Of a stretch of DNA of 64,000 nt, positions 12,102-18,425 are shown one piece after another. This DNA comes from Candidatus Omnitrophota bacterium (lineage in GTDB: Bacteria; CAIJMQ01): positions 248,001 through 312,000 of the forward strand of contig JAHJCU010000004.1 in assembly GCA_018812925.1 (NCBI GenBank), given 5' to 3'. Below the pieces are notes generated by a model. The model made no database searches. It was not told the origin of the DNA and was given only the letters and a program-made list of their open reading frames with translations. A program made the translations under genes and the position numbers. The number at the start of each line of letters is the position of its first letter. The stretch's first letter is position 1.

Positions 12102-13073
12102 TCATTTACTTTTTTTCTTATAATACTCAATCACGTCTTTTATTATATCTTCCAAAGATTTTGTCGGTTTAAACCCGATTGTTTTAGAGATTTTTGATAT
12201 ATCGGGAACTCTATATTTCAAGTCTTCAAAATCATCACCGTAAACTTGTCTATAAGGAATATATTTAATTTGAGATTTGCTTTGAGTAAGTTGCTTAACC
12301 ATTTCGGCTAATTGAGAAATATTAACAGGCTGAGGACTGCCCAAATTAAATATTTCACCATTTGTGTTCTCGTTTTCCATAAGAGAGATTAAACCATTGA
12401 CAGTGTCTTCTATATGGATAAAACTCCTCAATTGTTTTCCATCGCCATATACAGTTATCGGCTCGCCTTTTAACGCCTGTTCGACAAACCTTGGAATAAC
12501 CATACCATATTCCCCCACTTGTTTGGGACCGGATACGTTGAAAAGTCTTGTTATAACTATGGGCAACACTTTTTCTTTATGATAAGCAATAGCCAAAAAC
12601 TCATCTGTTGCTTTGCTGGCAGAATAACTCCATCTTAATTTTGTGGTTGGGCCCAGTATTCTGTCGGATTCCTCATTGAAAGGATAATTTTCGCTTTTGC
12701 CATATATTTCCGACGAAGAAGTAATAAGTACCTTTTTTTTATCATGAGACGCAATTTCAAGAACATTTTCTGTCCCTTCAATATTAATTCTTATGGATTT
12801 AATAAGATTTTCCATAATATATTTGACCCCAACTGCTGCTGCAAGATGATAAATTATCTCGCATTTATCTATTAGTTCTTTCAACAAGTCTTTATCTAAT
12901 ATGGAGCCCTGCTGGAAATGGAATCTGGGATTATTAAAAAGATGGGATATATTTTCTTTATTGCCCGTGGAAAAATCATCGATCGCAAACACATCATTAT
13001 TTTCTTTTAAAAGCAATCGTTCTGTTAAATTAGAGCCTATAAAACCAGCTGCGCCTGTTACCAAACATTGCAT
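12102..13073 (-). CDS. NAD-dependent nucleotide-sugar epimerase/dehydratase
   Basis: A 323-residue extended SDR protein with the dinucleotide motif GAAGFIGSNL (7-16) and the catalytic YSASK. The substrate-side motif RLFNVSGPKQ and the terminal loop RSFIHIEDTVNGL are also present. It belongs to the group of UDP-glucose 4-epimerases and UDP-glucuronate decarboxylases; sequence alone does not decide which. It sits directly upstream of the polyprenyl-phosphate transferase. A small word palindrome (AAAGATTT type, 12050-12090) separates the two genes. Confidence 0.88.
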   Translation of the reverse strand: MQCLVTGAAGFIGSNLTERLLLKENNDVFAIDDFSTGNKENISHLFNNPRFHFQQGSILDKDLLKELIDKCEIIYHLAAAVGVKYIMENLIKSIRINIEGTENVLEIASHDKKKVLITSSSEIYGKSENYPFNEESDRILGPTTKLRWSYSASKATDEFLAIAYHKEKVLPIVITRLFNVSGPKQVGEYGMVIPRFVEQALKGEPITVYGDGKQLRSFIHIEDTVNGLISLMENENTNGEIFNLGSPQPVNISQLAEMVKQLTQSKSQIKYIPYRQVYGDDFEDLKYRVPDISKISKTIGFKPTKSLEDIIKDVIEYYKKKSK

Positions 13074-13152: not shown

Positions 13153-13185
13153 AATCTGCTACTCTTTCAAAAAGAGCAGCAGATT
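13153..13185 (-). terminator. Intrinsic terminator after the MC1 gene
   Basis: Stem AATCTGCTACTCTTT with AAGAGCAGCAGATT, a loop of about four bases, and a T-rich stretch after it on the minus strand. It lies about 100 bp downstream of the MC1 stop and upstream of the epimerase gene. Confidence 0.7.
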
Positions 13186-13217
13186 TTATAAAACCCTTAG
13201 GATTAATTGTCTTGCCA

Positions 13218-13282: not shown

Positions 13283-13579
13283 CTATATCTTACTAAGTTT
13301 GTCTAACCGCACCTTTTTTACAGAAGGCTTATTAATCATATTCGGCATCCAATCAGGCGCATTATCAGGTTTTTTTACTTTCACTACTTTACCCTTAAAA
13401 ACATGTAATCTCCACTTGCCGTCTTTTTTTCTTGAATGTTCTCTTAATTTGATAAGACCTTCATTATCCTTTAAACCTCTTGAAGCGGCTTTTAATGCAG
13501 CAGCTCTCGGTGACCTACCCGTAAAAACATGTTTCTCCTTACTGCCTATTCTTAAAGAATACTGTTTAACTGTGTCCAT
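13283..13579 (-). CDS. MC1-family chromatin protein (archaeal type)
   Basis: A 98-residue very basic protein that matches the Methanosarcina chromosomal protein MC1 along its whole length: a beta-start KQYSLRIG, VFTGRSPRAAALKAASRG (18-35), IKLREH (43-48), HVFKGKVVKV (59-68), the DNA-contacting PDWMP loop (75-79) and a KPSVKKVRLDKL tail. MC1 is a monomer that sharply bends DNA. The gene has a strong promoter, an AAAGGAGG ribosome site and its own terminator, which suggests high independent expression. MC1 is best known from methanogens and haloarchaea, so its presence among purely bacterial genes suggests transfer. The family call is firm; the role as a nucleoid protein here is inferred. Confidence 0.9.
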   Translation of the reverse strand: MDTVKQYSLRIGSKEKHVFTGRSPRAAALKAASRGLKDNEGLIKLREHSRKKDGKWRLHVFKGKVVKVKKPDNAPDWMPNMINKPSVKKVRLDKLSKI

Positions 13580-13682
13580 AGCTCTACCTCCTTTTGTTAA
13601 AAATTAAAGTTGTTTCAAAATAATCTAAAAGCTTTCCAAATCATCTGCGGATTAATAACCCCTATGCACGCTTGTTTATATC

Positions 13683-13711
13683 CTTATATCAAAAAGAAAC
13701 AGCATTGACAA
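13683..13711 (-). promoter_or_regulatory. Sigma-70 promoter of the MC1 gene
   Basis: On the minus strand TTGTCA (13706-13711), a 17-bp spacer and TATAAG (13683-13688). The leader is about 95 nt and ends in AAAGGAGG seven bases before ATG. Confidence 0.75.
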
Positions 13712-13721
13712 GTCTTGTTTT

Positions 13722-14495
13722 TTATTTCCCTTTCAAAAAAGTAGAAATTTTTTTAGAAAAACTCGCTATCTTTTCACTGTTTGGATTCAGTTGAAGAGCT
13801 TTTTTTATATATGCGCGCGCTTGAACATAATCTCCGTTTTCAAAATACCACACAGCCACCATATAATACGCTTCCTCTTTCTTGTTATTGAACATAAACT
13901 TCAATATCTTTTCCCATTGGCTTTTACCATATACCTTTTCTATTACCTCTTTGTTTTCCACGATATATCTTACTGCAAGCTTGTTGCGCTTAAATGAAGG
14001 TAGCATTGACTTAAATAATTTTAAAGACGTTTCGAATAATTCTTTTGCAGATTCTATTTCTCCAGGCATTTCTTCTCTAATTTTTACCATCAATTCCTTA
14101 AAATCTTCCAAAGCTTCCGACAATTCTTCGTCGGTTTTGTTAAATCTTTGTCTTACTATATGGTCGTATTGTTCCAAAACATAAATATGTTCCTTGAAAC
14201 TCATTAATTGATGGAAAATTAAATGTATTGCGCGTTCAAAAGCGATTTCATGCGTCAGGAATTGGTGAGGTTTGTCTAAAAGATCGCGTATCAAATCTTT
14301 TAAATTCCAAAGCGGTCCCCTTTTTTCTTCCGTTCCCACCCATTCGGCAAAATGAACAAATTTAATTTTCCCTTCGCTTTTAAACTGCCGATATTCTTTT
14401 TTAAAATGCAAATAAGCGTTAAAAAATTGTTGGATGACATCTCTTAAAAACTCATCCCTCCTTTCTTCTAACCACATATTATCTTTCTGTTCCAT
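13722..14495 (-). CDS. Helical protein with C-terminal TPR unit
   Basis: A 257-residue soluble protein, strongly charged and predicted all-helical. The last ~60 residues contain a tetratricopeptide-like pair (EAYYMVAVWYFENGDYVQ, then ARAYIKKALQLNPNSEK). The N-terminal 200 residues match no family I know; they are rich in Phe, His and Lys (FFNAYLHFKKEYRQF). It stands alone between lolD and the MC1 gene. A protein-interaction role is all that can be inferred. Confidence 0.7.
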   Translation of the reverse strand: MEQKDNMWLEERRDEFLRDVIQQFFNAYLHFKKEYRQFKSEGKIKFVHFAEWVGTEEKRGPLWNLKDLIRDLLDKPHQFLTHEIAFERAIHLIFHQLMSFKEHIYVLEQYDHIVRQRFNKTDEELSEALEDFKELMVKIREEMPGEIESAKELFETSLKLFKSMLPSFKRNKLAVRYIVENKEVIEKVYGKSQWEKILKFMFNNKKEEAYYMVAVWYFENGDYVQARAYIKKALQLNPNSEKIASFSKKISTFLKGK

Positions 14496-16559: not shown

Positions 16560-18425
16560 TTATTCCCCTTTATCATCTCCAAAAAAAGCCGCAGGGCCAA
16601 CTTTCTTTTTTATCTCGAAAGACTTTTTTGCCAAATCAAAAGCCATGCCTAAATCTGCTTCGTCACATTTGTGGCAAGCGACTCTAACAAGACCCCCCAT
16701 TGTATATTTCTTGCCCGTTATATCTCTAAATGGACAATCTATATCTAGTAAGTCTTTTGGTGTTAAGCGAAGTGGAGCAATAGTAAGTTTTGATTTTTGG
16801 GGAAAAATACTAAAAAAAGGACCAACACCAATTCCGTCGTCAAAACTAAATTGACTCCTATCAACACGGACACTTATATTGTTGCTTAAAGCCAATATTT
16901 TATAAGTCAACTGTTTACAAAAATCAAGATGATATTTTAAAAACTTCAAGTTTTTCATATCTGGACCAAATAAAGATGCTTGTCCCCATAATAATCCTAA
17001 TGATGTTTTATCAAACTTTCTCATATGGGTAGATATTATAGTTTTTGCCTCTTGTTTGCTGATGAAGTGGGCCGGTATCTCGTCAATTTCTCGTTTAATT
17101 ACTTCCCCTCTCTGTTGTATATCTACAACTCTTAACAAACCTAGATTTCCCCGAGTAAAGTATTCCTTCGGGGTTTCCCATTTCGGGAATTTAGATATAT
17201 GCACTTCTAGTATCCGTTCCAATTCAGTAAACAACAAAAAAGTAGAATAGGAAGCGTTATCGGAGTGAAATACTATAGGAATATCTTCTAAGAACCTCTC
17301 TCTATTATGTCCTATTTCCCCTATTTCCTCGCATTTGCAACGGAATTTTACGATGTTTCGATGAAAGAAATACACATTTATTGGATATCTAATCTGCTCT
17401 AAATACTGGGTGGAATATACTCCTCCCATTCTCCAGACAAATTTATCATGTTCAGAGATGAAATCTTCATAGATATCCATTTTCTTCCAACTATCTGTTG
17501 CAAGTAAAAATGCCATCTTTTTCTCCGGTAGAATCAGAAAAGGGTTCCCAATTTTCTGTTTAATTATTTCCCACTCACTATTAGTAACTGGGAAATTCGT
17601 ACCCTCTGGCCGTCTTAATATACTGAGATTTCTAAGCCCTTCTATGTTCTTTAGTTCTTTGCGCAGGATAGGATTGTTTATTAATTTTTTGATAATTTTT
17701 ATTTTAGCCATCCATCGTTCCTTCATAAACTTTTTTTCGTCAATCCGATATTTGTCAGGTCCTGCTGGGTTAGAATTGAAGAAAGGTTCGGATATAACTT
17801 CTGCAATAGCATAAATACCAGCATCCTTACCTGACATCCAAATCAAAGCTATATCACCAATCTTGATCTTATCTTTATATTGGAAAATGCTCCAGCCATC
17901 GATATTGCAATTGGGATCAGTCAACGCGTTCAAAATATCATATTTGTCTGGATTTGCCTGAAAAATCCAAATATTTCTGTCTTTGCTTAAAGTGACTGGC
18001 TTTTCTTCAACTTTGCTTTCTTTTGGTTGGGTTTGTTCAACATCATCAAGAAATTTATAATTATGTTTTTGCGCTAGGTTCGATATGAAAGCAAGCCCTA
18101 ATTCTTTACACTCAATTCCTACGTTCTCCAAAAAAAGTTTTCTTTCGCTGGGGATAATGTTTGCGCATAGTAGAAGCTCGATTGTTTTATGAGGATTCTG
18201 TTGCTTTAATAAGCCGTAATATTCAATGATTTGTCCGGAGGCATCTCTCGATAAAATCCCCCTTTTGACTTCAACTATAATAGTTCGATTATATTTGTCT
18301 TCAAAAACTATATCAGCAAAACAACTTCCTATCTTAACTTGTTGCCCAATAAGCTTAAAACCAGAATTAGGGAAGAAATCTTCGGGATATTGGGCGATAA
18401 GATTTTCTATATCTTTTTCCAACAT
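16560..18425 (-). CDS. DUF91/NucS-like nuclease fused to an EVE domain and an unknown C-terminal region
   Basis: A 621-residue protein in three parts. Residues 1-115 match DUF91/NucS-type PD-(D/E)xK nucleases: Asp38 (FADIVFED), Glu52-x-Lys54 (VEVKRG) and the following QIIEYYG helix. Residues 150-290 are an EVE (PUA-like) domain: WIFQANPDKYDILNAL, GDIALIWMSGKDAGIYAIAEV. EVE domains read modified cytosines. Residues 300-621 are unfamiliar and carry FRCKCEE and ACHKCDEADLG cysteines. The build suggests a nuclease directed to modified DNA, like a type IV restriction enzyme. This function is inferred. The gene sits alone between word-repeat tracts. Confidence 0.8.
   Translation of the reverse strand: MLEKDIENLIAQYPEDFFPNSGFKLIGQQVKIGSCFADIVFEDKYNRTIIVEVKRGILSRDASGQIIEYYGLLKQQNPHKTIELLLCANIIPSERKLFLENVGIECKELGLAFISNLAQKHNYKFLDDVEQTQPKESKVEEKPVTLSKDRNIWIFQANPDKYDILNALTDPNCNIDGWSIFQYKDKIKIGDIALIWMSGKDAGIYAIAEVISEPFFNSNPAGPDKYRIDEKKFMKERWMAKIKIIKKLINNPILRKELKNIEGLRNLSILRRPEGTNFPVTNSEWEIIKQKIGNPFLILPEKKMAFLLATDSWKKMDIYEDFISEHDKFVWRMGGVYSTQYLEQIRYPINVYFFHRNIVKFRCKCEEIGEIGHNRERFLEDIPIVFHSDNASYSTFLLFTELERILEVHISKFPKWETPKEYFTRGNLGLLRVVDIQQRGEVIKREIDEIPAHFISKQEAKTIISTHMRKFDKTSLGLLWGQASLFGPDMKNLKFLKYHLDFCKQLTYKILALSNNISVRVDRSQFSFDDGIGVGPFFSIFPQKSKLTIAPLRLTPKDLLDIDCPFRDITGKKYTMGGLVRVACHKCDEADLGMAFDLAKKSFEIKKKVGPAAFFGDDKGE

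What the first reader, a model, noticed from the sequence alone, without database searches (positions are those of the whole stretch)
13283..13579. Archaeal MC1 chromatin protein gene in a bacterial chromosome with its own strong promoter and terminator
The protein matches Methanosarcina MC1 through its entire length, including the PDWMP DNA-contact loop. It is flanked only by bacterial genes. A TTGTCA-17-TATAAG promoter, AAAGGAGG site and terminator make it a self-contained, probably highly expressed unit. It may be the main nucleoid protein here, since MC1 bends DNA as strongly as HU or IHF. No HU gene is in the window, though one may lie elsewhere.
Basis: partly seen in the sequence, partly recalled or inferred. 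Interest (0 to 1): 0.75.

Follow-up and report, generated by a model that had tools for sequence, protein, structure and literature searches.

The report
Archaeal chromatin protein in bacterial phylum
A small DNA-bending chromatin protein known from archaea (MC1) is a fixed, bacterially expressed gene in a little-known bacterial phylum, where it sits alongside the usual bacterial protein HU rather than replacing it.

Summary
The ORF at 13283-13579(-) is a genuine MC1 protein (Pfam MC1 E 4.7e-22; only PDB relative is Methanosarcina MC1). It lies on a 593-kb bacterial contig in a genome of the Ratteibacteria. It is no chimera: 6 of 7 genomes of the phylum carry MC1, in the family between the same bacterial genes, with a conserved promoter, Shine-Dalgarno site and terminator hairpin. 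A second, cold-seep bacterial phylum has it in 5 of 5 genomes, 2-3 copies each. None of 376 other bacterial genomes tested had one.
All bacterial copies form one clade, nested with two copies from an Altiarchaeales single-cell genome, not with Methanosarcina. The best reading is an old archaea-to-bacteria transfer, then duplication: a second paralogue exists in a sister species, and in our genome its expected place falls off a contig end.
The guess that it may be the main nucleoid protein is not supported: an HU gene lies on the same contig. Most likely MC1 is an extra monomeric DNA bender using Pro75/Trp77 as a minor-groove wedge; the contact residues are kept, but bending and abundance are inferred. 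I found no paper describing bacterial MC1.

The parts
13283..13579 (-). MC1-family chromatin protein gene (paralogue A), 98 aa, pI 10.7, predicted charge about +18
13683..13711 (-). sigma-70-like promoter TTGTCA-17-TATAAG
   Evidence: seen; conserved in four genomes (TTGTCA/TTGCCA, TATAAG/TATAAA)
13587..13594 (-). Shine-Dalgarno site AAAGGAGG, 7 nt before ATG
   Evidence: a GGAGG-type site precedes every bacterial copy checked and neither of the two Altiarchaeales copies
13153..13185 (-). rho-independent terminator-like hairpin after the gene
13722..14495 (-). upstream neighbour, TPR protein of unknown role (context)
   Evidence: conserved neighbour in G001, G002, G003; Pfam
12102..13073 (-). 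downstream neighbour, NAD-dependent sugar epimerase (context)
   Evidence: conserved neighbour in G001, G002, G003; Pfam

Best explanation
The gene encodes a bacterial MC1: a small, monomeric, very basic protein that binds double-stranded DNA with little sequence preference and bends it sharply. A positive face (Arg25, Arg57, His59, Lys84, Lys89) grips the backbone while Pro75 and Trp77 wedge into the minor groove. An ancestor took it from an archaeon related to the Altiarchaeales lineage that carries the nearest copies. It gained a bacterial promoter, ribosome site and terminator, was duplicated, and is kept by purifying selection as an accessory nucleoid protein beside HU. Shown: family membership, conserved DNA-contact residues, expression signals, phylum-wide retention, co-existence with HU, tree position. 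Inferred: DNA bending, monomeric state, abundance, direction of transfer.
For: Pfam and PDB matches. DNA-contact residues named in PMC6776556: Arg25, His56, Pro72 and Trp74 are the same in all 19 bacterial copies, Lys81 in 18, Lys86 in all that reach that position; Lys54 is Arg throughout. The AlphaFold2 model (pLDDT 87.7) has the strand-strand-helix-strand-strand-strand order published for MC1. MC1 in 6 of 7 genomes of the phylum and 5 of 5 of a second bacterial phylum, 0 of 376 others. Same gene order in four genomes of two genera. Conserved promoter and hairpin. dN 0.05-0.07 against dS near or above 1.5, saturated. Bacterial copies plus the two Altiarchaeales copies form one clade at 100/99, bacterial copies alone at 100/79. 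The nearest Altiarchaeales copy lies on a contig with aIF2-beta, archaeal DnaG and LonB-like genes. HU in the same genome.
Against: No binding, bending or abundance data. Arg71 of M. thermophila MC1 is Ala here, Gln23 is Ser and Gln26 is Ala in paralogue A, so contact details may differ. With 98 alignment columns deep branches are weak, and the tree is unrooted. Foldseek and VIA-align did not bring up the solved MC1 structures, so the fold check is by strand order only.
Confidence: 0.78

Rival explanations
1. MC1 is the main or sole nucleoid protein here and has replaced HU.
For: Own conserved promoter and good ribosome site; no HU hit in 2 of 7 genomes of the phylum, though those are 81% and 64% complete.
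Against: HU is present in the same genome on the same contig (95 bits), in all three well-completed genomes of the phylum and in 5 of 5 of the second phylum.
Confidence: 0.1
2. Bacterial MC1 has become a specialised factor (for example a gene regulator, repair or replication helper, or RNA binder) rather than a general DNA packer.
For: It co-exists with HU; paralogues with different helix starts (SPRAAA against GARQAA/GARGAA) suggest divided roles; Gln23, Gln26 and Arg71 contacts are changed.
Against: The wedge and backbone-contact residues are kept; no operon partner ties it to one pathway.
Confidence: 0.2
3. The gene is archaeal contamination or a chimeric contig.
For: One related bin (G003) does hold an archaeal-element-like contig with a Methanosarcina-type MC1.
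Against: 593-kb contig; identical gene order in three other genomes at about 69-98% protein identity; bacterial promoter and ribosome site.
Confidence: 0.01
4. Transfer ran the other way: the Altiarchaeales lineage took its MC1 from bacteria.
For: The tree is unrooted; the bacterial clade and the two Altiarchaeales copies share a long stem.
Against: MC1 is widespread in archaea (63 of 394 genomes in the sample, 14 of 29 Altiarchaeota) and found in two bacterial groups only; both Altiarchaeales copies branch outside the bacterial clade.
Confidence: 0.08

Closest known systems
Methanosarcina thermophila MC1 (PDB 1t23, 2khl, 2nbj; PF05854)
   Same: Family, length, basicity, Arg25/His56/Pro72/Trp74/Lys81/Lys86 contacts, order of strands and helix
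   Different: About 50% identity; bacterial host; extra residues in two loops (GLKDNEGL, RKKDGKW); Arg71 to Ala, Gln23 and Gln26 changed; charge about +18 against +10
Altiarchaeales WOR_SM1_SCG MC1 (MCBE01000239, L020/L042)
   Same: 68-71% identity, KKDG loop, Arg88, nearest archaeal neighbour in the tree
   Different: Archaeal host and neighbours, TATA-like upstream sequence and no Shine-Dalgarno; lacks the four-residue insertion (xxGL) of the bacterial copies
Bacterial HU
   Same: Works alike: small, basic, low-specificity DNA bender of the nucleoid
   Different: Unrelated fold, dimeric; encoded separately in this genome
HTa (HU of bacterial origin in Thermoplasma) and MC1 gained by Marine Group II archaea (PMC7613761); bacterial histones of Bdellovibrio (PMC10627809)
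   Same: Chromatin proteins moved between distant lineages or found in the unexpected domain
   Different: Other families or other direction; here an archaeal nucleoid protein in bacteria that keep HU

Membership tests
MC1 (PF05854) | Scores above the curated family cut-off over nearly the whole model | tested here: met
   78.5 bits against 23; profile 12-95 of 96
MC1 (PF05854) | Minor-groove wedge Pro72/Trp74 and backbone contacts Arg25, His56, Lys81, Lys86 (PMC6776556) | tested here: met
   Pro75, Trp77, Arg25, His59, Lys84, Lys89 in the window protein
MC1 (PF05854) | Strand-strand-helix-strand-strand-strand order | tested here: met
   E5-11 E14-21 H24-33 E42-47 E56-69 E81-95 in the model
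MC1 (PF05854) | Structural match to solved MC1 | tested here: inconclusive
   Foldseek and VIA-align listed no MC1 entry and no convincing other fold
MC1 (PF05854) | Monomeric, non-specific DNA binding with strong bending | not testable with these tools
   Needs purified protein
HU/IHF (PF00216) | Match to the HU family model | tested here: not met
   Pfam scan of the protein lists MC1, not HU; HU is a separate gene

The most novel reading that the evidence does not exclude
An archaeal chromatin protein was taken up once by bacteria, duplicated, and became a fixed architectural component of the nucleoid in two bacterial phyla, giving a mixed archaeal-bacterial chromatin of MC1 plus HU.
Probability: 0.55. 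Interest if true: 0.72.

Novelty: new member of a known kind. Interest (0 to 1): 0.6.

Why it matters
Published surveys treat MC1 as an archaeal protein with a few viral relatives; a 2017 fold survey listed it as shared only by archaea and eukaryotic viruses (PMC5671483). A bacterial lineage that keeps MC1 across a phylum, with HU still present, shows that a chromatin component can be added to, rather than swapped into, a working nucleoid. It gives a natural test of how exchangeable nucleoid proteins are, a question raised in PMC7613761.

Tried and rejected
Contamination or chimera: rejected by conserved gene order. A further MC1 hit in another bacterium (G193, 22.7 bits): rejected, since the matched frame reads as an FtsJ/RlmE-like methyltransferase by eye. 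Phage or plasmid vector: no phage match, plasmid matches only in haloarchaea, and three viral contigs with distant copies of 38-47% identity that do not group with the bacterial clade. The second G002 copy (C99) as contaminant: less likely, because its neighbouring LeuRS is 92% identical to our genome's, whose gene is cut at the end of contig C6 at base 84989. Fold search against PDB: no MC1 entry listed. Rfam: no match in the window.

Full report
What is there. The ORF at 13283-13579 on the minus strand (98 codons) encodes an MC1-family protein: Pfam MC1 at 4.7e-22, 78.5 bits, and Methanosarcina thermophila MC1 as the only PDB relative by sequence (1.7e-16). An AlphaFold2 model (pLDDT 87.7) shows the five-strand-plus-helix order published for MC1 (order from PMC6776556). 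The residues that grip and wedge the DNA in the solved complex are kept: Arg25, His56, Pro72, Trp74, Lys81, Lys86 in M. thermophila numbers; Lys54 is Arg; Arg71, Gln23 and Gln26 are changed in the window protein. Structure searches did not list MC1 entries, so that check is inconclusive.

Where it is. The window is part of a 593-kb contig of a 1.47-Mb genome, 92% complete. A named relative in the same genus is 'Candidatus Ratteibacteria' (JAQURI, the same contig as G003:C125 by length and match). Neighbours are ordinary bacterial genes: RNase Y, YmdB, a glycosyl transferase family 4 enzyme, a sugar epimerase, a TPR protein, an ABC transporter pair, a class II (lysyl-type) tRNA synthetase. The order ABC permease, ABC ATPase, TPR, MC1, epimerase, glycosyl transferase is the same in G001 (another genus of the family), G002 and G003, with protein identities of about 69-98%. 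A chimera is excluded.

Transcription unit. TTGTCA-17-TATAAG at 13711-13683 matches the sigma-70 consensus in 10 of 12 positions. By chance 6.5% of shuffled gaps do as well, but the element is more conserved than the rest of the gap (22/29 against 49/105 invariant columns, p 0.004), and every family copy of paralogue A has it. The two class-level relatives have TTTACA-17-TATAAT. All bacterial copies checked have a Shine-Dalgarno site; the two nearest archaeal copies have none and have TATA-like sequence instead. The hairpin after the gene is conserved and far more stable than shuffles. So the gene is adapted to bacterial expression. That it is highly expressed is inference.

Distribution. MC1 occurs in 6 of 7 genomes of the phylum; the seventh is 64% complete. 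A second bacterial phylum, known here only from cold-seep assemblies (CSMAG records), has it in 5 of 5 genomes with two or three copies each; neighbours such as murA, coaD and accA show that these contigs are bacterial. Of the 379 other bacterial genomes sampled, three were members of that phylum and one further hit (G193) was a false match, leaving 0 of 376 outside the two groups. A second sample drawn around the other phylum gave no further case, but appears to repeat largely the same genomes. In archaea 63 of 394 sampled genomes have it, including 14 of 29 Altiarchaeota; this sample is centred on Altiarchaeota, so the fraction is not an archaea-wide rate.

Descent. In two maximum-likelihood trees the bacterial copies form one clade (100/79 with long branches left out), which with two copies from the Altiarchaeales single-cell genome WOR_SM1_SCG forms a clade at 100/99; the Methanosarcina-type MC1 lie far away. 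A four-residue loop insertion (GLKDxxGL) unites the bacterial copies relative to the Altiarchaeales ones. The closer Altiarchaeales copy stands beside aIF2-beta, archaeal DnaG and a LonB-like gene, so it is truly archaeal; the contig of the second copy differs in G+C (38% against 26%) and its origin is less sure. Transfer from archaea to bacteria is the simplest reading given the distribution, but the tree has no root.

Two paralogues. Ratteibacteria copies are not one clade (p-AU 0.033; a modest rejection): paralogue A (the window's) and paralogue B, which groups with the cold-seep phylum. G002 has both. B stands about 2 kb upstream of leuS there. In our genome leuS (92% identical) is cut at the very end of contig C6, so a B copy could lie in the gap. 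The count of one MC1 gene is therefore a minimum.

HU. One HU gene lies on the same contig, about 130 kb away; HU is in 5 of 7 genomes of the phylum (the two misses are 81% and 64% complete) and 5 of 5 of the second phylum. MC1 is an addition, not a replacement.

Mechanism. By homology it should work as a monomeric DNA bender with a Pro-Trp minor-groove wedge, adding bends and charge neutralisation to an HU nucleoid. Constraint is strong (dN 0.05-0.07, dS saturated). Whether it is a general packer or a specialised factor cannot be decided from sequence.

Literature. In the held library no paper found reports MC1 in bacteria. One fold survey lists MC1 as shared by archaea and eukaryotic viruses only (PMC5671483), and its spread into Marine Group II archaea, chlorella viruses and Methanoperedens plasmids is described (PMC7613761, PMC8715426, PMC9674854). 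The library is open-access only, so an earlier report may exist.

Noticed in passing
L130 (G003:C2:45000-60556): A 60-kb contig in the Ratteibacteria bin JAQURI looks like an archaeal mobile element: many small ORFs, a Salactin-like actin, a SET protein, an RNA ligase and a Methanosarcina-type MC1; probably a mis-binned archaeal plasmid or virus.
   Followed up: partly
window 16560-18425: A NucS C-terminal-like plus EVE-domain protein sits between the ABC transporter genes and the lysyl-type tRNA synthetase gene; in G001 these two are directly adjacent and in G002 other genes stand there, so this looks like a variable insertion spot.
   Followed up: partly
window about 13186-13215 and 13597-13610, minus strand: Blocks AATCCTAAGGGTTTT (before the terminator) and TTAATTTTTAA (before the ribosome site) are conserved in four genomes; role unknown.
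   Followed up: no
L065, L066, L067 (IMG/VR contigs): Viral contigs of 44-76 kb encode MC1-like proteins with an insertion between helix and last strands, 38-47% identical to the window protein.
   Followed up: no
L007 (G004:C159): The MC1 gene of one class-level relative reads a TGA near its end, probably a sequencing frameshift or a broken copy.
   Followed up: no
L118 1419-1973 (G002:C99): Small ORFs reading like repeats (IPACAGMT / SRVRGNDKKR) lie next to paralogue B; such repeats may explain why assemblies break there.
   Followed up: no
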